A DNA stretch of 56,880 nt from a virus. The position numbers and the translations under genes were made by a program. Below the pieces are notes generated by a model. It was given only the letters and a program-made list of their open reading frames with translations. It made no database searches and had not been told where the DNA came from. Within the stretch, counting starts at the first letter, position 1, and the number at the start of each line of letters is the position of its first letter. Positions 31,422 through 54,372 of the stretch are shown here, piece after piece. The stretch lies in IMG/VR virus record IMGVR_UViG_3300032285_002671, positions 1 through 56,880 of that record; one strand, given 5' to 3'.

Positions 31422-31453
31422 TAAATATAAGATGAATTTTTTAATTCTCCAAA
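31422..31453 (-). promoter_or_regulatory. Bacteroidota-type promoter module
   Basis: TTTG (31453-31450), 20 bases, TATATTTA (31429-31422) on the minus strand, upstream of the gene at 30882. The HNH gene ends within it (I-D-L-E-N stop). AGAT/ATCT arms. Confidence 0.78.
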
Positions 31454-32157
31454 TCTATTATTTTATTTTCTAAACTTAGAATTGCATATTTCCATTTAAA
31501 ACCACCTGCTGTTTTTTGTTTTCCTAAACAACAAGCACGAATATCTCCTTTTATTTTTTTATTTATTTCTTTAATAGAAACCCATTCTTGAATAAATTCA
31601 TCTTGTAAATTATATTGAAGGACAGGTTTGGTAGATTTAACCCAAGATTTTCTATTTTTAATACTTATTTTAAGATTTTCTATATGTTGAGAGCTAAATA
31701 TTTTACCTTTTTTAGTTCTACTCATTTTTTCTTTAACTTCTTCTGAGAATTTAGTACCTTTATTTCTACTAATACCCTTGTTTGACTGGCTTATTTTTTG
31801 TCTTAATTCAGGAGTCATAAAATTTTTAGGTTTGGATTTATTTTTAATTTTTAATACCCAATCTATTTTAATTTTTTCATATGTTCTATTTGATATTATA
31901 TATCGGTTGTTTTTATTTTTTTGTTTTCCAATAGACATCAAAAATAAAGCATACCATAACTTTTCATTATTAGGATAAATTTCTGTTAATAATCGGTGAC
32001 ATAGAAAATGCTCTCTTGCTGTTAATTCTACTAAATTTATTTTATCATTATTACCTCCCATACAACGAGGAATAATATGATGTTTTTCTTTATATCCTTC
32101 TAATTGACGTGATTTAGCTCTTTCTATAATTTGATTATAAATTTTTTGATAGTTCAT
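31441..32157 (-). CDS. HNH homing endonuclease with NUMOD domain (copy 1)
   Basis: A 238-residue protein. The HNH core is EKHHIIPRCMGGNNDKINLV (about 24-43) followed by TAREHFLCHRLL. A middle segment RQKISQSNKGISRNKG is NUMOD3-like and the C-terminus KPVLQYNLQDEFIQEWVSIK then RACCLGKQKTAGGFKWKY is NUMOD1. Homologous to the HNH gene at 33528. It would nick or cut DNA at a target gene and spread by copying itself. It sits next to DNA ligase, a common site for such elements. Confidence 0.92.
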   Translation of the reverse strand: MNYQKIYNQIIERAKSRQLEGYKEKHHIIPRCMGGNNDKINLVELTAREHFLCHRLLTEIYPNNEKLWYALFLMSIGKQKNKNNRYIISNRTYEKIKIDWVLKIKNKSKPKNFMTPELRQKISQSNKGISRNKGTKFSEEVKEKMSRTKKGKIFSSQHIENLKISIKNRKSWVKSTKPVLQYNLQDEFIQEWVSIKEINKKIKGDIRACCLGKQKTAGGFKWKYAILSLENKIIDLEN

Positions 32158-33499: not shown

Positions 33500-33531
33500 T
33501 AAATATAAGAAAGATTATTTTGATAACCTAA
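33500..33531 (-). promoter_or_regulatory. Bacteroidota-type promoter module (TTAG)
   Basis: TTAG (33531-33528), 20 bases, TATATTTA (33507-33500) on the minus strand, upstream of the 30-residue membrane peptide gene. Confidence 0.7.
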
Positions 33532-34313
33532 CTAATTTTATATCTCCAAATAAAATTACCTGCTGTTTTGCTAACTCCTCTAGCACAATTTTCAATAGAA
33601 CTTCTACTAATGTTGGTATTTATAGAAGCTTCATAAATACTATCCCATTCTTTTAATGAAATAAAATCAGAATTATATTGAATAACTTTTTTATATTTGA
33701 TATTTCGACTCCCTGGTGGAAATTTTTTTCCTTTATTATGGTTAGTATATCCTAATTTTCTACCTGATTTATTATATGTTACTTTATTTATTATTTTATT
33801 TGAATCTATATATTTCCAGTTAAACCCACCAGATGATTTTGTTTCTTCTCTAGCGCAACTTTCAATACCGCCCTTATTTATTTGTAAATATTTACTTGCT
33901 TCTGTAGGTGAATTAAAAGTTTTAATATATTCTCCTTGTAAAGTATATTGTTCTATTTGTTTTCTATTATCAAATCTTTCTTTACTTTGTATAGAATGTA
34001 TTTTATTCTTGAAATTTTCATATATTCTAGAACTAGTAGCATGTCGTTTTTGATTTCCTAATCCATTAATCATACACCACATAGCATAATACATTTTATT
34101 TTCTTGAGGTGTTCCTTTATATATTTCAACTAATAATCTATGACATATATAATGTTCTTTAGGTGTCAATAATACTAAATTATGTTTATTGTTTGAACCT
34201 CCTAAACTTTTAGGAATAATATGATGTTTTTCAAATAGTATTCCTTTATTCTTTTTTCTATTTAATTTTTGAGTATTACTTATAATACTGTTGTAAATTT
34301 TTTGATAATCCAT
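33528..34313 (-). CDS. HNH homing endonuclease with NUMOD domains (copy 2)
   Basis: A 261-residue protein related to the one at 31441. HNH core FEKHHIIPKSLGGSNNKHNL (about 27-46) and TPKEHYICHRLL. Two NUMOD1-like repeats follow: KQIEQYTLQGEYIKTF...GFNWKY and KVIQYNSDFISLKEWDSIYE...GNFIWRYKIS. Inserted between the receiver-domain gene and the membrane peptide, so both ligase-side genes are flanked by endonucleases. The upstream leader lacks the usual promoter module, as expected of a recent insertion. Confidence 0.92.
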   Translation of the reverse strand: MDYQKIYNSIISNTQKLNRKKNKGILFEKHHIIPKSLGGSNNKHNLVLLTPKEHYICHRLLVEIYKGTPQENKMYYAMWCMINGLGNQKRHATSSRIYENFKNKIHSIQSKERFDNRKQIEQYTLQGEYIKTFNSPTEASKYLQINKGGIESCAREETKSSGGFNWKYIDSNKIINKVTYNKSGRKLGYTNHNKGKKFPPGSRNIKYKKVIQYNSDFISLKEWDSIYEASINTNISRSSIENCARGVSKTAGNFIWRYKIS

Positions 34314-34815: not shown

Positions 34816-35211
34816 TTATTTTCTTTTATCTGTTACTACAACCCAAGTTTTATAATTATCTAAATATACAATATCCGCTTTAAATCTTGATGTATAAAAA
34901 AATCCATCTGAGTATTTTACATAATCGTTTGACCTTAAAGCATCTTCTAATATTTTATATGTTGCTCCTTCTATAGTATAAACATAACGAACACAATTAT
35001 TATAATCATCAAAATAATAGATACGCATTTGATTATGTGTTGTTGCTGTTAAGCATTTAGTTCCATTATCTGTTCTATCTATATTAATAGAATATCCTTT
35101 TAGATTCATTTCATCTCTAATATCATAAAATGAGAATCCAAGAAAATTTTGAGCGTTTGATTTCGTTACCATCGTCCCGATGATAAGGAGTAGAAATATT
35201 AGTTTTTTCAT
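34816..35211 (-). CDS. Secreted protein of unknown function
   Basis: A 131-residue protein with signal peptide MKKLIFLLLIIGTMVTKSNA (cleavage likely after Ala-20) and a mature domain of beta strands (YSINIDRTDNGTKCL; MRIYYFDDYNNCVRYVYTIE). It resembles small periplasmic proteins of Bacteroidota. It is adjacent to a second exported protein at 35217, giving a pair. Confidence 0.75.
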   Translation of the reverse strand: MKKLIFLLLIIGTMVTKSNAQNFLGFSFYDIRDEMNLKGYSINIDRTDNGTKCLTATTHNQMRIYYFDDYNNCVRYVYTIEGATYKILEDALRSNDYVKYSDGFFYTSRFKADIVYLDNYKTWVVVTDKRK

Positions 35212-35216
35212 TGTTT

Positions 35217-35603
35217 TTATTTTACGTCTTCTACTTCAATAGATTGAATTAATGCTTTATTATCCCAAGCTAAATGTAAGTAAATATATCTTATAACATT
35301 ATCATTTTTATCAACTTGTGAACATGTGATCATTCGTCCATAATTATTTTCAGATACAAATCTAATGTGTAAATCCTTATCAAAGTATCTTTCTAATTTA
35401 TGTTGAGCATCTCGTTTATGTAATGCTGATTCCTTAATATGGTTTCCTATAATAACAAAATGTACATATGATTCCATGTGGTGTTCTAAATGAAATCTGG
35501 ATAATGCACTTACATATGGCTTTACATCAACATACGAATACTCTTTATCTTGTCCTAATGACAAAAAAGGTAATAATAAAAATAGTAATATAATTTTTTT
35601 CAT
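35217..35603 (-). CDS. Secreted protein of unknown function
   Basis: A 128-residue protein with signal peptide MKKIILLFLLLPFLSLG (signal peptidase I or II not decidable; the next residue is Q). Mature part EYSYVDVKPYVSALSRFHLE then MITCSQVDKNDNVIRYIYLH, a mixed alpha/beta domain. Pairs with the exported protein at 34816. Possible superinfection-exclusion or envelope function. Confidence 0.75.
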   Translation of the reverse strand: MKKIILLFLLLPFLSLGQDKEYSYVDVKPYVSALSRFHLEHHMESYVHFVIIGNHIKESALHKRDAQHKLERYFDKDLHIRFVSENNYGRMITCSQVDKNDNVIRYIYLHLAWDNKALIQSIEVEDVK

Positions 35604-40731: not shown

Positions 40732-41169
40732 CTACTTTAAAGCAGATAATAAAGCTAATTTAATTGCAGATGATAAGGTTGTTTGTTGAAATGGAACCCC
40801 ATCATTTAATTCAAGTAACATAGCATTAGCAGTAGATTTATGTTCACCTGTACCTGTATGTTCTACACCATCTATATTCACTATAACTTTTACTTCAGTT
40901 ATTTTATTGTTTATAGCAAATCCAGCTATACGAAATGCATTTTCAGGAATACCAATATAACTTATATTTACAGTAACGGATTTACCTTTACATAAATCAT
41001 ATCCTCTATCTTGTAATATATCTTCAGTAATTTGTTTTACACCAAATAAAACATTTCTGTCTTCAATTTGCTTAACATCAGCAGTAGTGTAAACAGAATC
41101 TACTGAAACACATTGCCCCATACTAAGTAGAGGCAATGTGAATAGTATTATAAATAAAAGTTTTTTCAT
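40732..41169 (-). CDS. Exported protein of the envelope cluster
   Basis: A 145-residue protein with signal peptide MKKLLFIILFTLPLLSMG and a mature domain containing GKSVTVNISYIGIP and VKVIVNIDGVEHTGTGEHKS, a pattern of small outer-membrane-associated beta proteins. C-terminal amphipathic helix (PFQQTTLSSAIKLALLSALK). It is transcribed last in the envelope cluster, whose other members include a CsgG-like pore lipoprotein; a periplasmic partner role is inferred. Confidence 0.75.
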   Translation of the reverse strand: MKKLLFIILFTLPLLSMGQCVSVDSVYTTADVKQIEDRNVLFGVKQITEDILQDRGYDLCKGKSVTVNISYIGIPENAFRIAGFAINNKITEVKVIVNIDGVEHTGTGEHKSTANAMLLELNDGVPFQQTTLSSAIKLALLSALK

Positions 41170-41525
41170 TAGTTGTTAATAGTACTTGATAATGAATTAC
41201 CATCTTCTTCATCAACTTTTTGGATTAACATCTTATCTCTATCTTCTGAATTAAACCAATAGTCAACTACTTTATTTAAGTTACCTACAAAAGCACCTAA
41301 TAAGATTAGTAACATTTCTTTCCATGATTCTTGAATCACTATATCAAAAAATACAGCCATGTTAATTCCGAATATAATAAAGAAAAACAAGAATAATACA
41401 ATCCCTGTAATTTTCCATCTGTTGTTTTGCATTTGTTGTAACATAAAATAGAATCTATTTTTATCATCTACTTTTACAAACTCAGATTTTGGTTCTAAAC
41501 CTAATACTTCTTTAATTTTTGTCAT
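41169..41525 (-). CDS. Two-span membrane protein, holin-like
   Basis: A 118-residue protein: TM1 at 38-58 (ITGIVLFLFFFIIFGINMAV), TM2 at 68-86 (MLLILLGAFVGNLNKVVDYW), charged ends. The segment LLGAFVGNLNKVVDYWF resembles holin-like proteins of T4-like aquatic phages. One-base overlap with the exported gene at 40732. A late-type box AATATTTATA lies 16 bases upstream. Confidence 0.68.
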   Translation of the reverse strand: MTKIKEVLGLEPKSEFVKVDDKNRFYFMLQQMQNNRWKITGIVLFLFFFIIFGINMAVFFDIVIQESWKEMLLILLGAFVGNLNKVVDYWFNSEDRDKMLIQKVDEEDGNSLSSTINN

Positions 41526-41540
41526 AATTGTGTTGTTTAT

Positions 41541-41560
41541 TTGTTATAAATATTGTTAAT
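41541..41560 (-). promoter_or_regulatory. Late-promoter-like box
   Basis: On the minus strand ATTAACAATATTTATAACAA, about 16 bases upstream of the start at 41525. It shares AATATTTATA with the boxes before the genes at 17232 and 18175. Confidence 0.45.
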
Positions 41561-42674
41561 TTGAATAACCCGTTCGTACTATATAAAAATTAGTTGAACC
41601 ACCACTAGTCAATACTCCGGTAGTTGTTGATTGTGTTCCTGTTATAGTTGATCTTAAATCAGATGTAGTAGCTCTGATATTAGTATGTTCTGTTTGTGTA
41701 AGTATTCTATAGTTAGACATAGACCATACTTTTCCATTTCGCTTTTGAATTTGTAAGTAAATATCAGATACAGTAAAATTACTATTTGAATTTAAATCAT
41801 ATCTAAAATAATCAGGACCTACTATAGTACGTTTTGATAATATTAAACTACTATTATCAGAAGCATCTGCTGCTTGAGGTGATGGTATAGATAAAGTATC
41901 TAGCGTTAATTTCCATTCAGTTCCAGCAGGTGATGTCCTTGATATAGAGTAATCTCCAGTTAAGTTAGTCACATAAGATGTATCTAAAGTCCATGCTGAT
42001 GTAGTTACTACACCCAATTCACTTGCTTGTAATGAGTAGCTAGTTTGTCCAGGTCGTTTCCAAACAACTGCTAATCCTTCTCCACCACCATATTCTTGCA
42101 TTCTAGCTTTAAATGTATATTGTGTTCCAGCAGTTAATGTTATGTTTCCATATTGATAACCACTCATACCATGACCGCCGTAATACGATGTTACTAATGT
42201 TCCGTTTATAATTAAATCAGCACCATCATCTGAATTAATACCAAAACTATATGTTCCTGATACAGCAGGAGTAAATGTACCTGATACTTCTGTAGAGAAA
42301 AATTCTCCATTGTTTGGCACTGTCGCTCCAGCGTTTGATATTAATTGCCAATAAGTCCAGTTAAGTGATGTACTTGCTGCTATATTGCCACTCCATCTTA
42401 AAACAGTATTACTATAAGCAGTATTAAAACACTTATCCATTTCTGTTACACTAGTAGGGTAAGCAGCATATTGACCTGTATTTCCGTTTCCGTTATGTGT
42501 TGAATATACTTTAACAGTTGTACTACTTACAGTAGTGTTAGTTCGTTTATAGAGCATCACTCTTATACCATTTACCCCAGTATTATTAATACCATACACT
42601 TTTCCTGTTTGAGAGAAAGTTTGAGCATTAACAATAGATGTTATAAATAAAAATATAAATAATAGTTTTCTCAT
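41556..42674 (-). CDS. Exported PA14-domain protein with repeat module shared with the T9SS cargo
   Basis: A 372-residue protein with signal peptide MRKLLFIFLFITSIVNAQ. Residues about 25-45 look like an Ig-like start (GKVYGINNTGVNGIRVMLYK). A PA14 domain follows (FTPAVSGTYSFGINSDDGAD; YTFKARMQEYGGGEGLAVVW). The last 110 residues contain YFRYDLNSNSNFTVSDIY then FYIVRTGYSN, homologous to a segment of the 635-residue protein at 45386. PA14 domains bind carbohydrates or proteins; the D-N-S-N-S-N-F-T-V-S-D loop is dockerin-like. It ends exactly after this module and has no T9SS sorting domain. Confidence 0.82.
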   Translation of the reverse strand: MRKLLFIFLFITSIVNAQTFSQTGKVYGINNTGVNGIRVMLYKRTNTTVSSTTVKVYSTHNGNGNTGQYAAYPTSVTEMDKCFNTAYSNTVLRWSGNIAASTSLNWTYWQLISNAGATVPNNGEFFSTEVSGTFTPAVSGTYSFGINSDDGADLIINGTLVTSYYGGHGMSGYQYGNITLTAGTQYTFKARMQEYGGGEGLAVVWKRPGQTSYSLQASELGVVTTSAWTLDTSYVTNLTGDYSISRTSPAGTEWKLTLDTLSIPSPQAADASDNSSLILSKRTIVGPDYFRYDLNSNSNFTVSDIYLQIQKRNGKVWSMSNYRILTQTEHTNIRATTSDLRSTITGTQSTTTGVLTSGGSTNFYIVRTGYSN

Positions 42675-43918
42675 AACGTTAATTTAGCTCCAAATAATAT
42701 CTGATAATTTACTAATTGTTCTGTTACTGAATATGTTGTTCCTCCTGTTAATCCAAATCTAAACGCTTTTGTTAATTTATAATTCACATTTAAAAATGGT
42801 AATAATAGTGGTTTTGTTTGGAATATACTTTCAGTGTAGTATTTCATATAAGGAACATATACTGCCGCGAGTATAAATACAGCATCAATATTTTTAGTTA
42901 GTTGGCCTTTATACATCCCACCACCGATTGCTACTACTGTTGTTAATGGTTCTTTATTTAACATTCCATACATTGCACCTGCTCCATATAATCCTGTCAC
43001 TTTTTTGACATTGTCTATACGAATAAAAACTAATGTATTACTAAAACTATTAGGTAATATTGATACACTATTTGAAACTAAGTCAATATGTTTTCTAGCT
43101 GTTTTCTGTGTAATCCATGATTTAAATACCGATACATTACCTACCTTAGCATTAACAGTGAAGTCTATGGCTACACCAAGTGAGCGCTTTTTATCGCCGG
43201 TTATTTTGATAAAGCTAGTAGTTAATTTAGCGTCTTGTGCTGCGTCAGCTGCTCGTTGCATACCAACTATATCACCTGTAAGCATAATAGCTGGTTTGTC
43301 TTGTTTTGCTGTTGCTTTACTAGTTGATTTAGTAGAACTTGAAGATTGTTTTTGTTCTTCCTGTTTAGCTTCTTCTTGCTTTTGTTCTTCAGTTTTCTTT
43401 TCTTCAGGTTTAGATGTATTATTACCCTCACTACCACCTGAACTACTTGAACTTCTTGTTGCTGCAGAACCACCTGATACACTATTAGCAACTCCTGAAA
43501 CAGAATTAGTTGCTGTTGATGCTGCTGTAGATGCTGTATTTGAAGCTACATCTGTTATTGATGTTAACATTGAACTTAATGATACAACGTTATTTACAAC
43601 GCTATTAGATACGTTTAATACATTTGTAGTAATAGTTTGAACTCCAATTTGAGCACACGGATTACCTTTACCATAGCTGTTATATACATCATTAGCCCAG
43701 GTATCAAATGAACCATTTTGTAAATCAGATGGAGTGAATGTTTTAACTTGACCATAGTAATTCATTACAATAGGTAAGTTACCATTCAAATCAGATACAT
43801 TAATGCTCTTAACTTCCTTAGTACAAGGATCTATATAAGTGTAAGAGAAAGATTGGCCTTGAGCGGCCAATCCTGATAATATCAGTAATAATAGTAATAT
43901 GTTTTTATACCAACCCAT
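42671..43918 (-). CDS. Outer-membrane beta-barrel protein with low-complexity linker
   Basis: A 415-residue protein with signal peptide MGWYKNILLLLLILSGLAAQG. The N-terminal domain contains FTPSDLQNGSFDTWANDVYN. Residues about 100-200 are Ser/Ala/Thr/Gly- then Glu/Lys/Gln-rich (PEEKKTEEQKQEEAKQEEQK), a flexible periplasmic linker. The C-terminal 200 residues show alternating amphipathic strands (TTVVAIGGGMYKGQL; RFGLTGGTTYSV; ILFGAKLTL), as in outer-membrane barrels ending on a hydrophobic residue. It likely spans the outer membrane beside the CsgG-like protein. A large plus-strand frame (43005-43640) is a shadow. Confidence 0.75.
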   Translation of the reverse strand: MGWYKNILLLLLILSGLAAQGQSFSYTYIDPCTKEVKSINVSDLNGNLPIVMNYYGQVKTFTPSDLQNGSFDTWANDVYNSYGKGNPCAQIGVQTITTNVLNVSNSVVNNVVSLSSMLTSITDVASNTASTAASTATNSVSGVANSVSGGSAATRSSSSSGGSEGNNTSKPEEKKTEEQKQEEAKQEEQKQSSSSTKSTSKATAKQDKPAIMLTGDIVGMQRAADAAQDAKLTTSFIKITGDKKRSLGVAIDFTVNAKVGNVSVFKSWITQKTARKHIDLVSNSVSILPNSFSNTLVFIRIDNVKKVTGLYGAGAMYGMLNKEPLTTVVAIGGGMYKGQLTKNIDAVFILAAVYVPYMKYYTESIFQTKPLLLPFLNVNYKLTKAFRFGLTGGTTYSVTEQLVNYQILFGAKLTL

Positions 43919-44102
43919 TTATGTCTTCTTTAAAATCAAAATAAACATTGTCAATCGGTGTATCTACTCCTTTTATAATATCTATTTGATAATATGCTTT
44001 AATTTCTATAACAACATATAAACATAACGATAGTATAAGAACTACATATAAGTATTTTAAAAATCGTAATAATTCACTAACATTACTTTTCGAAAATACC
44101 AT
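43905..44102 (-). CDS. Small single-span membrane protein
   Basis: A 65-residue protein: one hydrophobic segment at 13-35 (FLKYLYVVLILSLCLYVVIE) and a charged C-terminus. It overlaps the CsgG-like gene by 20 bases and the barrel gene by 14 bases, which fits tightly coupled translation. Function unknown. Confidence 0.65.
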   Translation of the reverse strand: MVFSKSNVSELLRFLKYLYVVLILSLCLYVVIEIKAYYQIDIIKGVDTPIDNVYFDFKEDINGLV

Positions 44103-44820
44103 CTTTAATCATTTTTGAAACAACTCTAGAACATCCTGTTTCTAGAGCTTTTCTTGTTGAAATGCCTACTGTTGATTGCGCAAACTTCATTTCAAGAGAT
44201 TTCAAAAACGATTGACCATATTGTGTAGCTTCACCCATACCAGAACCAACTCTAATTTGTCCTGATTCAGCATCTACAAATCTTACCTGTAAACCTAAAC
44301 GTGTTGTTACTTGTAATTGTTTCTTACCAGCAGCATATGTTTCTTGTTCATCAACTGAGAAATCATATACTTCGATATAAACGAAATACTTAGCTAATTT
44401 AATTTTACCTTTACCATCTAATTTGTTTTCAGTAAAACCTTTTTTACTTGCTTGGAATTGTTTAACCATTTTAAGTTTAATTTCTTCTTTATCTTCAGTA
44501 AACTCAAATCGATTAGTTCCTTCTAAATAATCCAAAGCAATATTTGTTACACCTAATCCAACATTCTTTTCTTTTAATACCGGATACATGTTTAACACGT
44601 TATCATTAATACCAATTGATAAAATTTGGATTGGGATTTGTTTTCCATCATAATCACTAACTGTTTCTATAGATTGTTTCTTTTCAAAATCAGCTTGATA
44701 TGTTTCAGTTCTAGTTGTACCACAGCTTGTCATTGTTAGTATAAGTACTACTGCAGCGAAAAACGATAACCCTATAAATAGAGCCATAGCCACTTGTATT
44801 ATTTTATTTTCCTGTTTCAT
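44083..44820 (-). CDS. CsgG-like outer-membrane pore lipoprotein
   Basis: A 245-residue protein. Residues 1-33 are a lipoprotein signal (VVLILTMTSC, lipobox Cys near 33). The body matches the CsgG/curli-pore family: GLGVTNIALDYLEGTNRFEF, then KKQLQVTTRLGLQVRFVDAE and GMGEATQY, ending with KALETGCSRVVSKMI. CsgG forms a nonameric outer-membrane channel that exports curli subunits. No CsgA-like subunit is seen here. Phage CsgG genes exist in some marine phages as I recall, but pairing with a T9SS cargo is not known to me. Confidence 0.8.
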   Translation of the reverse strand: MKQENKIIQVAMALFIGLSFFAAVVLILTMTSCGTTRTETYQADFEKKQSIETVSDYDGKQIPIQILSIGINDNVLNMYPVLKEKNVGLGVTNIALDYLEGTNRFEFTEDKEEIKLKMVKQFQASKKGFTENKLDGKGKIKLAKYFVYIEVYDFSVDEQETYAAGKKQLQVTTRLGLQVRFVDAESGQIRVGSGMGEATQYGQSFLKSLEMKFAQSTVGISTRKALETGCSRVVSKMIKDGIFEK

Positions 44821-45058
44821 CTTCTTTCTTTTTACGGCTAAATTTATCTAACGAGTCAGCACCCATACCAGCAATAGTAATAGCAGTTACAGCATATACT
44901 AATTCGGGATTAGGATTGAAATCTTTCTGTGATAATGAGTTAATAGTCATAGTAACACATAAAAATACAGCTCCCATAAGCGCAATAACGGGTTTGATAG
45001 AGGTTGAACCTCTTTCATCTTTAAATAAATCTAATACCCATTGTTTAAAAGTTACCAT
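44804..45058 (-). CDS. Two-span membrane protein, holin-like
   Basis: An 84-residue protein with two hydrophobic segments, about 22-40 (IKPVIALMGAVFLCVTMTIN) and 52-68 (ELVYAVTAITIAGMGADSLD), a charged Lys/Glu tail, and N-terminal FKQWVLDLFKDERGST. This is a common layout for phage holins. Overlaps the CsgG-like start by 17 bases. Confidence 0.68.
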   Translation of the reverse strand: MVTFKQWVLDLFKDERGSTSIKPVIALMGAVFLCVTMTINSLSQKDFNPNPELVYAVTAITIAGMGADSLDKFSRKKKEDETGK

Positions 45059-45372
45059 GGTGCTTCTTCTTCCTTAGATTTTTCTTCTTTTTTCTTTTCT
45101 TCTTTAGCAGGTTTTTCTATTACTCTTTCTTTAATAATAGTTGTTGGAGCGGCTGATTGTTTTTGTTCGTTATTATTAGATAAATTAATAACTACAGGTG
45201 CTGCGGCTGGTGCTGCTTGTTCTGTTTTAGTTTCTTCTTTAACTTCTGGTTCAGCGTTAAAGAATGTTGTTGTAAACCAAGTACCTGCTCCAAGTACTGC
45301 TGTTGATAATGTACCGATGATAGTCTTCTTAAGACCACCCCATGTACCGTCGTTTGTTGTTTCTTCTGACAT
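45052..45372 (-). CDS. Membrane-anchored Pro/Ala/Lys-rich protein
   Basis: A 106-residue protein: one hydrophobic segment near 15-33 (KTIIGTLSTAVLGAGTWFTT), then a long Glu/Ala/Pro/Lys-rich disordered region (TEQAAPAAAPVVINLSNNNE) ending in a Lys/Glu run. This looks like a periplasm-spanning linker, as in TonB or spanin-like proteins. Likely couples inner and outer membrane in the envelope cluster. Confidence 0.7.
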   Translation of the reverse strand: MSEETTNDGTWGGLKKTIIGTLSTAVLGAGTWFTTTFFNAEPEVKEETKTEQAAPAAAPVVINLSNNNEQKQSAAPTTIIKERVIEKPAKEEKKKEEKSKEEEAPW

Positions 45373-45385
45373 AATCTATTTATTT

Positions 45386-47266
45386 TTATAAAATTGTTCC
45401 GTTTAATACTTTAGTTGTACCTAATACTTTACCATCACATTCAACTACTGCTAAATATGCACTTGGAGGTAAAGAACTTAAGTTAGCTGTGTATCTGTAT
45501 TGTCCTTTAGGCATTTTACCATCATATATGCTTGATACTTTATTACCATTCATATCAACAAAATATACTGAAGCATATGCTGCTGATGGAATGTTAAATT
45601 GTACTGCTACTACACCTGAAGTTGGATTAGGATAAACCATAATGTTAATTTCACCACTCATAGTAGCTACGTTTTTAGTTTTAAATACTTCAACTCTACC
45701 ATCTGTAGGTCTGATGCTTAAGTCTTTAGCTGTTTCATTACCAACGAATTTACGAGTTACATATAATGGTGAACCATTCCAATCTGATTTAGGCTTTTTA
45801 GCATAGAACTGTAATATAACAGCTTCTTGTCCGTCTTTAATTTTATTTTCTTCACTCATATCAACTCCACCCCATTCTACAACACCGTTATTAGCGTTAG
45901 TAAATGACATCCATTTAGAAGTAGCTTCTTTTGTAGTTACTCCTTTAAATTCTAATAAATCAGTATCGTATTTCATTGCTAACTGGACAGCCCCTAGGGT
46001 CTGTCCGTTAGTCAATACTTTTACAGGAATGTTTACTAAATTACCTTCTTCAACGTTTAATGTAGGTAAATTAACTTCCATTTCGTTTAAGTTAGCATAG
46101 TAATCAGTTGTTTGGTCTATAATAAAGTTAGGAGCATTTAATGGATTAGTTATCTTAATTGGAACTAATCTAGCCATGTGATATCCAGTTTCGTTTACGT
46201 CACCTGTTGCTAACACATATACTGTAATTGAATCAGTACCGGTTCTAATTATATATGAATAATTAGCTGTTCCTGGAAGTAACGTGCTATAGTTAATCAT
46301 ACTATCTTGAGTGATTGTGTTATAATCAGCTTGTGTAAAGAATCTTACATCAGGAACTGAGAATTTAGTAAATCTACCAGCGATTCTATTAAAGATTGTA
46401 TATACGTCTGATATTGAAATACCACCGTTATTGTTTACGTCTGATGTATGGAAATCAAATGCTTTTGGACGTTCAATACCCATTACAAATCTATTTACTT
46501 TCTGAGCATCTGCTGTAGTAACTACGTTACCTAATGTTAAAGTATCACCTTGTACTTCAATTTTACAAGTCCAATATGTAGTATCTACAATAGGGCTAAA
46601 TCCAAATTTACCACTTAAATCTGTTGTATCAACTGATATTAATGACCAGTTACCACCAGTTTTTGGTTGTTTCCATAAACCAACTAGTAGATTCTTAGTT
46701 CCAGTACCTGTTACGTTTTTAAATGAACCTGAGAAATTAATACTTGGTCTAACAAATATACCACCTGCGTTAAATTGTGTTAATGTTGTATCTTTACCAA
46801 TGTTTGTAGAAGCTATTGTTGGGTAAGTATTATCAAATGCTAACGCGTTTATTTTTGTTAAATATTGAAAGGTTGATGCAGTACTATGTTTAAAATTAAT
46901 ATTGAATAATTCACCTGATGGATATGTGTAATTTAAATCAGGTCCGTTATATACTGATGTGATTACAATTTTATCACCACTCACGTAGTATTGTAGGTAA
47001 TGAAGACTTGAATCAGCAGTTGTTAATGATACTATAGGGTTAGTAAACGCTACTGCATCATAGGTAATTTTAAATTGTAAAGCGGTAATTTTCGTTGCTG
47101 TTGTGTTATTGTAACATAATTTAACATTAGTTTCATTAGCAACAGATGAACCAACACTGTATGTTGGTTTGATAATAATTGAGTTTCCGTTAGGAGTTGG
47201 ACATGTTTGTGCTGTGACTAGCAGTGTCGTTGTAATCAACGATAGTAACAATAGTATTCTTTTCAT
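45386..47266 (-). CDS. T9SS cargo: cohesin-like/dockerin-like protein with type A sorting domain
   Basis: Start taken at 47266 (MKRILLLLSLITTTLLVTAQ, signal peptide); a frame to 47293 adds nine residues. In order: a beta-rich cohesin-like domain (about 40-150), repeat segments, a dockerin-like loop DVNNNGGISISDVYTIFNRI (about 280), SYIIRTG, a second cohesin-like domain (VPVKVLTNGQTLGAVQLAMK), and a C-terminal domain of about 80 residues with MVYPNPTSGVVAVQF, VYFVDMNGNKV and YLAVVECDGKVLGTTKVL. The last is the type IX secretion type A sorting signal used by Bacteroidota to anchor or release proteins at the cell surface. A terminator and a late-type box lie upstream. Confidence 0.9.
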   Translation of the reverse strand: MKRILLLLSLITTTLLVTAQTCPTPNGNSIIIKPTYSVGSSVANETNVKLCYNNTTATKITALQFKITYDAVAFTNPIVSLTTADSSLHYLQYYVSGDKIVITSVYNGPDLNYTYPSGELFNINFKHSTASTFQYLTKINALAFDNTYPTIASTNIGKDTTLTQFNAGGIFVRPSINFSGSFKNVTGTGTKNLLVGLWKQPKTGGNWSLISVDTTDLSGKFGFSPIVDTTYWTCKIEVQGDTLTLGNVVTTADAQKVNRFVMGIERPKAFDFHTSDVNNNGGISISDVYTIFNRIAGRFTKFSVPDVRFFTQADYNTITQDSMINYSTLLPGTANYSYIIRTGTDSITVYVLATGDVNETGYHMARLVPIKITNPLNAPNFIIDQTTDYYANLNEMEVNLPTLNVEEGNLVNIPVKVLTNGQTLGAVQLAMKYDTDLLEFKGVTTKEATSKWMSFTNANNGVVEWGGVDMSEENKIKDGQEAVILQFYAKKPKSDWNGSPLYVTRKFVGNETAKDLSIRPTDGRVEVFKTKNVATMSGEINIMVYPNPTSGVVAVQFNIPSAAYASVYFVDMNGNKVSSIYDGKMPKGQYRYTANLSSLPPSAYLAVVECDGKVLGTTKVLNGTIL

Positions 47267-47332: not shown

Positions 47333-47346
47333 ACTATAAATATTAT
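47333..47346 (-). promoter_or_regulatory. Late-promoter-like box before the T9SS cargo gene
   Basis: On the minus strand AATATTTATAGTCA, about 65 bases upstream of the start at 47266. The terminator hairpin lies between box and gene, so a late transcript would begin with that hairpin unless the box is unused. Confidence 0.35.
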
Positions 47347-47789
47347 AATTCTTCTTTTAATCGTTCTTCTTGTGTCAGAAGACCCTTTCCAAATTTTTTA
47401 ACACGATCATAATATCTTTTCTTAACACGTTCTGATATGACTAGTGGATTACCCTCATCATCAATTCTAACAAATTTAATATGAGTATGAGTAACTACAT
47501 CCTGTTTACCTGTATATACGTTATGCTTTCGCATTTCTATATACAGAGTAACAGATGTTTTACCAAATTCTTTTACCTCACCATATACTTTAATAATATT
47601 TCCTGATTTAACAGGTTTTTCAAATATTAAACTATCTATTTTAATAGTGACAACTCGAGGTGTATCACAAATTTGAGCAGCGTACGCCGCTGATGCTTCG
47701 TCAATAAGAGCCATAATATTACCTCCAAACATATTAGAGTGTACTCCTATATCTCCTGCTTTACAAATATGTGTTGATATTAATTCCAT
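47343..47789 (-). CDS. Acyl-CoA thioesterase, hotdog fold (YciA-like)
   Basis: A 148-residue protein: GDIGVHSNMFGGNIMALIDE (13-32), where N19 and the FGG motif with I-D-E match the active-site helix of YciA-type thioesterases; then a hotdog beta-sheet (VVTIKIDSLIFEKPVKSGNI). It splits acyl-CoA to CoA and free acid. A metabolic gene seldom seen in phages; possibly alters membrane lipid supply or releases CoA. Downstream end of the thymidylate synthase operon. Confidence 0.87.
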   Translation of the reverse strand: MELISTHICKAGDIGVHSNMFGGNIMALIDEASAAYAAQICDTPRVVTIKIDSLIFEKPVKSGNIIKVYGEVKEFGKTSVTLYIEMRKHNVYTGKQDVVTHTHIKFVRIDDEGNPLVISERVKKRYYDRVKKFGKGLLTQEERLKEEL

Positions 47790-53332: not shown

Positions 53333-54160
53333 CTATCTTACTGCTTTAAACAATGCTGGTACTTGACCATATTGAGGCAATACTCCATTCCATTTCTGGA
53401 TAAATTGTTGTTGTAATAGATTATCCGTTAAGGTTGTTTGACGTAATCTATTAGCTTCTGCTTCTGCCCTAGCTGTTGTAATCATTGCTTGAGCATCACC
53501 TTCAGCACGAGCTACTTTAATTTTAGCTTGAGCTTCTGCTGTCTTTACTTGATTCTCAGCTTGAAGTGCTTGTTGTACTGCATTATTCTTAGCATTAATA
53601 GCGTTCTTAAATGATTCTGGATATACTAAGTTACTTGTTAATTGCTGCACAATAAATCCTTCTGCAGTTAATCTACTATGTAGATCCTTCATAACTAATG
53701 ATTCAAACTTTTGTCTATTACTAATTAAACTATCGGCATTAAATTCATTAGCTGCTACACGAAATACATCTTGTACTGTTGTCTTTAAAAATGCTACCTC
53801 TAATTCTTCTAAGTCTTTTCTATATTTTCTATAAATGTCCGGAGCTCTATCTGATACGATATTGTAATTGATAATTGGATTTACTGCAAACTCACTACCA
53901 TCTTTTGAGTTAACTACGAATCCATGCTCTCCAGTGTATTCAACGTGACGAACAAATGTTGGCCATTCAATAACTGTTGATGTAAATGGATTGTAAAAGG
54001 TCCATCCTGTAACATACACGATGTCATTTACTCCTTTGTCATCACCGAAATAAGAAACTTTCATACCTACATGTCCAGCATCAATACGTGAACAACTTGT
54101 TGTGGTGAATAATGCAATGATACCTAGTACCATTAACATTGATTTTATTTTATTTTTCAT
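53333..54160 (-). CDS. SPFH (prohibitin/stomatin)-family lipoprotein
   Basis: Start taken at 54160 (MKNKIKSMLMVLGIIALFTT); a longer frame to 54232 would overlap the upstream gene. 275 residues: lipobox FTTTSC, SPFH domain (GHVGMKVSYFGDDKGVNDIV; GFVVNSKDGSEFAVNPIINY), then a coiled coil (QVKTAEAQAKIKVARAEGDA) and AEAEANRLRQTTLTDNLL. SPFH proteins form ring assemblies in membranes and control proteases. A phage-encoded, lipid-anchored version beside ClpP is unusual; possible roles are protease control or protection against host defence. Confidence 0.87.
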   Translation of the reverse strand: MKNKIKSMLMVLGIIALFTTTSCSRIDAGHVGMKVSYFGDDKGVNDIVYVTGWTFYNPFTSTVIEWPTFVRHVEYTGEHGFVVNSKDGSEFAVNPIINYNIVSDRAPDIYRKYRKDLEELEVAFLKTTVQDVFRVAANEFNADSLISNRQKFESLVMKDLHSRLTAEGFIVQQLTSNLVYPESFKNAINAKNNAVQQALQAENQVKTAEAQAKIKVARAEGDAQAMITTARAEAEANRLRQTTLTDNLLQQQFIQKWNGVLPQYGQVPALFKAVR

Positions 54161-54162
54161 AA

Positions 54163-54372
54163 CTATTTTACAAATATAAATTTTACAAAGATTTTCCAGT
54201 TTAAAGAGATAACATACAGAAGAATTATACATCCAACAAAGAATGCAATTGTACTTGGCATGTTTACAAATGGAATAATAATGTATTCACATATACTCCA
54301 AGTAATTGCAACTTGAAGTAATAAAAGTAACGCGAGATTGCGTTTAAAGAAGTTTTCTATTTTTTGTTTCAT
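54163..54372 (-). CDS. Small two-span membrane protein
   Basis: A 69-residue protein with two hydrophobic segments (LALLLLLQVAITWSICEYII and STIAFFVGCIILLYVISLNW). It is two bases upstream of the SPFH gene start and may be its membrane partner. No motif recognised. Confidence 0.72.
   Translation of the reverse strand: MKQKIENFFKRNLALLLLLQVAITWSICEYIIIPFVNMPSTIAFFVGCIILLYVISLNWKIFVKFIFVK

What the first reader, a model, noticed from the sequence alone, without database searches (positions are those of the whole stretch)
45386..47266. Phage gene carries a type IX secretion sorting domain
The 635-residue ORF has a signal peptide, two cohesin-like domains, a dockerin-like calcium loop and an 80-residue C-terminal domain (MVYPNPTSG...) that fits the type A T9SS signal. 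T9SS is a Bacteroidota-only system that places proteins on the cell surface. A lytic T4-like phage using host T9SS to export its own protein would be a new way to reshape the host surface, for example to block other phages or prevent debris from binding progeny. It also ties the host to Bacteroidota with T9SS. A homologous region in a second phage gene suggests the use is established.
Basis: partly seen in the sequence, partly recalled or inferred. Interest (0 to 1): 0.92.

Follow-up and report, generated by a model that had tools for sequence, protein, structure and literature searches.

The report
Phage surface scaffold exported by T9SS
A family of viruses of Bacteroidota bacteria carries genes for a cellulosome-like docking scaffold with swappable sugar-binding modules, and one scaffold protein ends in the bacterium's own export tag, so the virus probably decorates the surface of the cell it infects.

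Summary
The tag is real. The minus-strand ORF 45386-47266 (626 aa from ATG) has a signal peptide, two cohesin folds, an X-dockerin-like middle and a C-terminal type IX sorting domain (PF18962 E 4.7e-7, above cut-off). It is not chance or contamination: related virus records carry one PF18962 domain above cut-off in 37 of 42 cases, including the cultured Flavobacterium phage immuto.

The gene belongs to a conserved same-strand module: cohesin-CTD scaffold, small membrane proteins, an exported protein weakly like CsgG, a probable outer-membrane protein, an exported lectin-dockerin protein and a small exported protein. No relative was found in 84,980 bacterial and archaeal genomes. The second gene's homologous region is the dockerin part, not a T9SS tag. 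Its lectin module is swapped between phages (PA14, C-type lectin, LamG, GEVED). In immuto the scaffold is split into two adjacent genes, which implies that the pieces assemble.

Best reading: the scaffold leaves by host Sec and T9SS, and cohesin-dockerin contacts hold the lectin at the infected-cell surface. Export is well supported, assembly plausible, purpose open. T9SS cargo in phages was reported in 2019 and 2020; the phage cohesin-dockerin module appears new.

The parts
45386..47266 (-). Scaffold gene: signal peptide, cohesin 1, X-like domain, dockerin-like, cohesin 2, type A T9SS CTD (626 aa)
47207..47266 (-). Signal peptide MKRILLLLSLITTTLLVTAQ
   Evidence: read from sequence; hydropathy check positive in 77 of 80 relatives
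46826..47134 (-). Cohesin 1
   Evidence: PF00963 17.1 bits, E 2.0e-4, below cut-off; cohesin fold in model
46547..46735 (-). X-like beta domain between cohesin 1 and dockerin (limits approximate)
   Evidence: model strands 178-239; collinear with the Coh-X-Doc structures 4fl4 and 3kcp
46367..46540 (-). Dockerin-like helices with calcium-loop motif DxNxxGxISISD
   Evidence: Dockerin_1 E 0.14 here; relatives reach cut-off
45689..46081 (-). Cohesin 2
   Evidence: PF00963 28.1 bits, E 8.2e-8, over cut-off
45422..45637 (-). Type A T9SS C-terminal sorting domain
   Evidence: TIGR04183 26.2 bits; PF18962 E 4.7e-7
45052..45372 (-). Small protein: one predicted membrane segment, then a Pro/Ala/Lys-rich tail
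   Evidence: conserved in position across the module loci
44804..45058 (-). Small protein with two hydrophobic segments (holin-like by eye)
   Evidence: conserved in L016
44083..44820 (-). Exported lipoprotein-like protein, weakly like CsgG
   Evidence: at least 372 viral relatives; PF03783 sub-threshold in one relative only
43905..44102 (-). Small membrane protein of 65 aa
   Evidence: 57% identical in L002 and L005
42671..43918 (-). Exported protein with low-complexity linker and barrel-like C-terminus; probable outer-membrane protein
   Evidence: present in 59 of 59 flanked loci
41556..42674 (-). Exported lectin-dockerin protein: PA14 domain about 42024-42311, dockerin-like region about 41739-41927, no CTD
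   Evidence: PA14 E 2.7e-13; swap pattern
41169..41525 (-). Small membrane protein that lies between scaffold and CsgG-like gene in other loci
   Evidence: 72-81% identical in L013, L014, L016
40732..41169 (-). Small exported protein of 145 aa, partly similar to the CsgG-like family
   Evidence: present in 59 of 59 flanked loci

Best explanation
This is a phage-encoded surface-display module. During infection the scaffold is made with a Sec signal peptide, crosses the inner membrane, and is carried across the outer membrane by the host type IX system, which reads its type A CTD; like other type A cargo it is then anchored at the cell surface or released. Its cohesins bind, probably with calcium, the dockerin end of the exported lectin protein, which has no CTD of its own in any relative tested, so the lectin's sugar-binding part ends up at the infected cell's surface. 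Shown: the domains, the CTD, the signal peptides, conservation and purifying selection, the module, the lectin swapping and the gene split. Inferred: actual T9SS export, cohesin-dockerin pairing and surface assembly. Least certain: the benefit, most likely changing what binds the infected cell (superinfection exclusion or receptor masking, or holding cells and progeny together on glycans).
For: CTD over curated cut-off in 37 of 42 records, exactly one per record, and TIGR04183 in 30 of 34 rows. Two cohesins per scaffold, records 34 of 34. Best structural matches are the CipA Coh-X-Doc scaffoldin and cohesin-dockerin complexes. Five core genes together on one strand in 52 of 59 flanked loci. 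Signal peptides on the main proteins. Scaffold split into Coh1-Doc and Coh2-CTD genes in immuto and other loci. Lectin middles swap while dockerin ends stay. dN/dS about 0.1-0.26, CTD included. Away from tail and lysis genes in immuto. Host of immuto is Flavobacterium, a genus whose members generally have T9SS (own knowledge).
Against: No experiment. Dockerin scores are mostly below Pfam's cut-off, and no complex was modelled. The host of the window phage is inferred from a relative. One clade lacks both CTD and lectin-dockerin gene, so T9SS export is not essential to all such modules. How the lectin protein crosses the outer membrane is unknown. The CTD part of the model has modest confidence.
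Confidence: 0.62

Rival explanations
1. The proteins are virion parts (fibre or decoration adhesins), and the CTD is only an Ig-like domain borrowed from host proteins, not an export signal.
For: Phages often carry Ig-like and lectin domains on virions (general knowledge); the module holds lectin domains.
Against: Conserved signal peptides would remove the proteins from the cytoplasm where virions assemble. In immuto, tail fibre and spike genes lie about 80 kb away. The CTD sits at the extreme C-terminus with the conserved YPNP start and, in most relatives, a Lys-Ile-Ile-Lys-like end.
Confidence: 0.1
2. The module is a lysis or outer-membrane disruption system: a CsgG-like pore, holin-like small proteins and surface proteins prepare the envelope for release, as proposed for the phage Melnitz curli pore (PMC9004378).
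For: Small holin-like membrane proteins lie inside the module. In the L039 clade a gene that reads as a lysozyme/chitinase lies beside the CsgG-like gene. Precedent proposal.
Against: immuto has its annotated holin and chitinase elsewhere (gp79-gp80). Lectins, cohesins and a CTD are not needed for lysis. CsgG membership is only weakly supported.
Confidence: 0.12
3. The scaffold is exported by T9SS, but cohesins and dockerins do not pair with each other; they bind host or environmental ligands, and the lectin protein acts separately.
For: Cohesin and dockerin modules outside cellulosomes often have unknown partners (general knowledge); dockerin scores are weak.
Against: Co-conservation of two dockerin-bearing genes with the cohesins, the gene split, EF-hand-like loops, and absence of the lectin-dockerin gene in the same clade that lacks the CTD.
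Confidence: 0.16

Closest known systems
T9SS cargo of Cryophage (PMC7468147) and of BACON-domain crAss-like phage cluster 2 (PMC6949934)
   Same: Phage-encoded proteins with type A T9SS sorting domains; one Cryophage cargo has a PA14 domain; surface change or superinfection exclusion was suggested there
   Different: Those are variable single cargo genes or BACON proteins; no cohesin-dockerin scaffold or conserved multi-gene export module is described in the passages read
Flavobacterium phage immuto gp13-gp19 (MW353176)
   Same: Same module; about 30 window ORFs match this genome, largely collinear
   Different: Scaffold split into two genes; lectin is C-type; annotated only as hypothetical, cohesin-domain or lectin-domain proteins
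Cellulosome scaffoldin (CipA of Clostridium thermocellum)
   Same: Cohesins with an X-dockerin dyad; best structural match
   Different: No dockerin-bearing enzymes seen; lectins instead; exported by T9SS in a Gram-negative host; viral
Pelagimyophage and Melnitz curli-like clusters (HTVC008M, PMC7029224, PMC9004378)
   Same: Phage-encoded exported adhesin-like gene set; HTVC008M has a PA14 plus curlin-repeat protein beside CsgG and CsgF
   Different: True CsgG and CsgF and curlin repeats; no cohesin, dockerin or T9SS CTD in the proteins scanned

Membership tests
T9SS type A cargo | N-terminal Sec signal peptide | tested here: met
   sequence; hydropathy and cleavage-site check on relatives, 77 of 80; no SignalP available
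T9SS type A cargo | C-terminal domain matching PF18962 or TIGR04183 at the protein's end | tested here: met
   PF18962 over cut-off; TIGR04183 20.9 bits as protein, 26.2 as frame, cut-off 23; family-wide 37 of 42 records
T9SS type A cargo | Host with T9SS | tested here: inconclusive
   relative immuto infects Flavobacterium; host of the window phage is inferred only
T9SS type A cargo | Secretion and CTD cleavage by PorU | not testable with these tools
   needs experiment
Cellulosome-type scaffoldin | Cohesin domains | tested here: met
   two per protein; PF00963 and fold
Cellulosome-type scaffoldin | Dockerin domain | tested here: inconclusive
   E 0.14 in the window protein; 25 of 33 records at E<=0.05, 3 over cut-off
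Cellulosome-type scaffoldin | Dockerin-bearing carbohydrate-active enzymes | tested here: not met
   the dockerin-like partner genes scanned carry lectin-type domains, no enzyme domain; so it works like a scaffoldin but is not filed as a cellulosome
Curli (type VIII) secretion | CsgG PF03783 match | tested here: not met
   no match in the window protein; one relative 18.9 bits against cut-off 20.8; hhalign not significant
Curli (type VIII) secretion | CsgF and curlin repeats | tested here: not met
   none in Pfam scans of the module proteins, whereas HTVC008M proteins match both

The most novel reading that the evidence does not exclude
A lineage of T4-like phages of Bacteroidota builds its own calcium-dependent, cellulosome-style docking platform on the infected cell through the host T9SS, and swaps lectin heads on it to change which glycans, cells or competing phages the cell binds.
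Probability: 0.45. Interest if true: 0.87.

Novelty: new variant of a known kind. Interest (0 to 1): 0.72.

Why it matters
If true, these phages do not only enter and leave through the host surface: they re-equip it during infection with a modular adhesin built on cohesin-dockerin docking, using the host's own surface secretion route. It would be testable at once in a cultured phage (immuto on Flavobacterium sp. LMO8), would explain a gene set found in hundreds of environmental viral contigs, and would link T9SS biology with superinfection exclusion or cell aggregation. It also parallels the unexplained curli genes of pelagiphages.

Tried and rejected
A first structure model from 12 close homologues was useless (pLDDT 47.6); a deeper alignment gave 73.8. 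The CsgG identity was tested by Pfam, PDB profile search and hhalign and is only suggestive. PDB sequence search with the scaffold found nothing significant. A contamination or chimera reading was rejected because the module recurs in an isolate genome and in many contigs. The idea that the second gene is another T9SS cargo was rejected (one CTD per record). A weak dockerin hit in immuto gp191 looks like an EF-hand in an unrelated protein. Upstream regions were read by eye for promoter motifs without a clear result.

Full report
Observation. The minus-strand ORF 45386-47266 encodes 626 aa from ATG; 635 aa counts from an upstream TTG. Pfam finds Por_Secre_tail (PF18962, E 4.7e-7, residues 544-612) and Cohesin (E 3.9e-7, two stretches), both above curated cut-offs. 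Dockerin type I scores E 0.14, below cut-off. TIGR04183 is 20.9 bits in a protein scan and 26.2 bits (cut-off 23) in a six-frame search. The protein starts with MKRILLLLSLITTTLLVTAQ, a typical Bacteroidota-style signal peptide.

Relatives. Sixteen viral contigs encode a relative; all but one of the matches (a truncated frame in L015) are essentially full length at 72-77% identity. The only annotated phages in a 50,697-record collection with a relative are the immuto isolates on Flavobacterium sp. LMO8, 30% identical over 88% of the protein. In immuto the protein is two adjacent genes: gp14 (cohesin 1, X, dockerin-like; no CTD) and gp15 (signal peptide, cohesin 2, CTD; PF18962 5.4e-9, cohesin 6.4e-9). 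About 30 window ORFs match immuto, including a baseplate wedge protein (48%) and thymidylate synthase (58%), largely collinear. The window is thus a fragment of a T4-like phage related to Immutovirus, which points to a Bacteroidota host without proving it.

Module. The best conserved gene, an exported protein at 44083-44820, has at least 372 relatives in viral contigs. None was found in 84,980 bacterial and archaeal genomes by the same pattern-plus-tblastn scan, and the scaffold gave none either. That scan is of limited sensitivity. Among 59 loci with enough flanking DNA, 59 have a cohesin gene, 59 the probable outer-membrane protein, 59 the small exported protein, 53 a CTD, 52 the lectin-dockerin gene, and 52 all five, always on one strand. 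Many of these loci are near-duplicates: the scaffolds collapse to 29 at 88% identity. Curated models agree: PF18962 over cut-off in 37 of 42 records, exactly one per record; Cohesin in 34 of 34; Dockerin_1 in 25 of 33 at E<=0.05, in both scaffold and lectin genes, but over cut-off in only 3. TIGR04183 hits 30 of 34 aligned rows.

Structure. A model built on 34 diverse sequences (mean pLDDT 73.8) gives as best solved matches the cohesin-X-dockerin end of the C. thermocellum scaffoldin (4fl4, 3kcp; E about 1e-7; that these chains are CipA Coh-X-Doc is my own knowledge) and then many cohesins, several from cohesin-dockerin complexes. The match runs over about 320 columns, with poor global superposition (TM about 0.4 by target), as expected of hinged modules. 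The CTD region has the expected run of strands but modest confidence, and was not searched alone.

Variation. The lectin gene keeps its two ends (a short N-terminal domain, and the X-dockerin) while its middle is PA14 (window, L009, L016), C-type lectin (immuto, L060), C-type lectin with an inserted LamG (L002, L013) or GEVED (L054). This is the pattern of an adhesin head under exchange. The scaffold is under purifying selection (dN/dS roughly 0.1-0.26 in close pairs, the CTD included). In one clade (the L039 group) the cohesin protein lacks the CTD and the lectin-dockerin gene is absent. A neighbouring lipoprotein there shows a sub-threshold CTD-like match (E 0.097), and a gene that reads as a lysozyme/chitinase lies beside the CsgG-like gene. 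T9SS use is therefore a property of most, not all, of these modules.

Mechanism. Signal peptides on the main module proteins and the location away from tail and lysis genes in immuto argue for action at the envelope of the infected cell. Type A CTD proteins are moved across the outer membrane and handled by the PorU, PorV, PorQ and PorZ attachment complex (PMC11205867). Since the lectin protein never has its own CTD, the simplest route to the surface is docking to the cohesins of the CTD-bearing scaffold, before or after export. The split in immuto, where Coh1-Doc lacks a CTD and Coh2-CTD is its neighbour, supports physical association (gene fusion argument). Export is well supported but not observed, pairing is inferred, and function is open: superinfection exclusion or receptor masking, adhesion or aggregation, or help with lysis.

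Known work. Phage-encoded T9SS cargo was described in Cryophage (PMC7468147) and in a BACON-domain phage cluster (PMC6949934), and UniProt already labels one homologue of this protein as a sorting-domain protein. I found no paper on a phage cohesin-dockerin module in the held library, which lacks most subscription journals. The nearest functional parallel is the curli-like cluster of pelagimyophages and Melnitz, where the HTVC008M cluster also contains a PA14 plus curlin-repeat protein. The new part is the conserved, apparently virus-only, cellulosome-like display module.

Noticed in passing
L095:7585-8910 (Pelagibacter phage HTVC008M): The protein next to the phage curli genes carries PA14 plus curlin repeats, both over Pfam cut-offs; a lectin on a possible phage amyloid, parallel to the lectin-dockerin gene here.
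   Followed up: partly
L039:8239-8607: In the clade without CTD, a lipoprotein next to the cohesin gene has a weak CTD-like match (PF18962 E 0.097): possibly another anchoring route.
   Followed up: partly
L097 (immuto about 49-60 kb): immuto also carries a cluster of annotated glycosyltransferases and sugar transaminases, perhaps another surface-changing set.
   Followed up: no
window 34816-35603: Two adjacent small exported proteins with signal peptides, unknown function.
   Followed up: no
window 53333-54232: Lipoprotein that by eye resembles SPFH/band-7 (prohibitin-like) proteins.
   Followed up: no
window 47343-47789: Hotdog-fold thioesterase (4HBT, E 3.2e-15) encoded just upstream of the scaffold; also near it in L012 and L014.
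   Followed up: partly
window 31441-32157 and 33528-34313: Two similar proteins with an HNH-like KHHIIPxxxGG motif, probably homing endonucleases.
   Followed up: no
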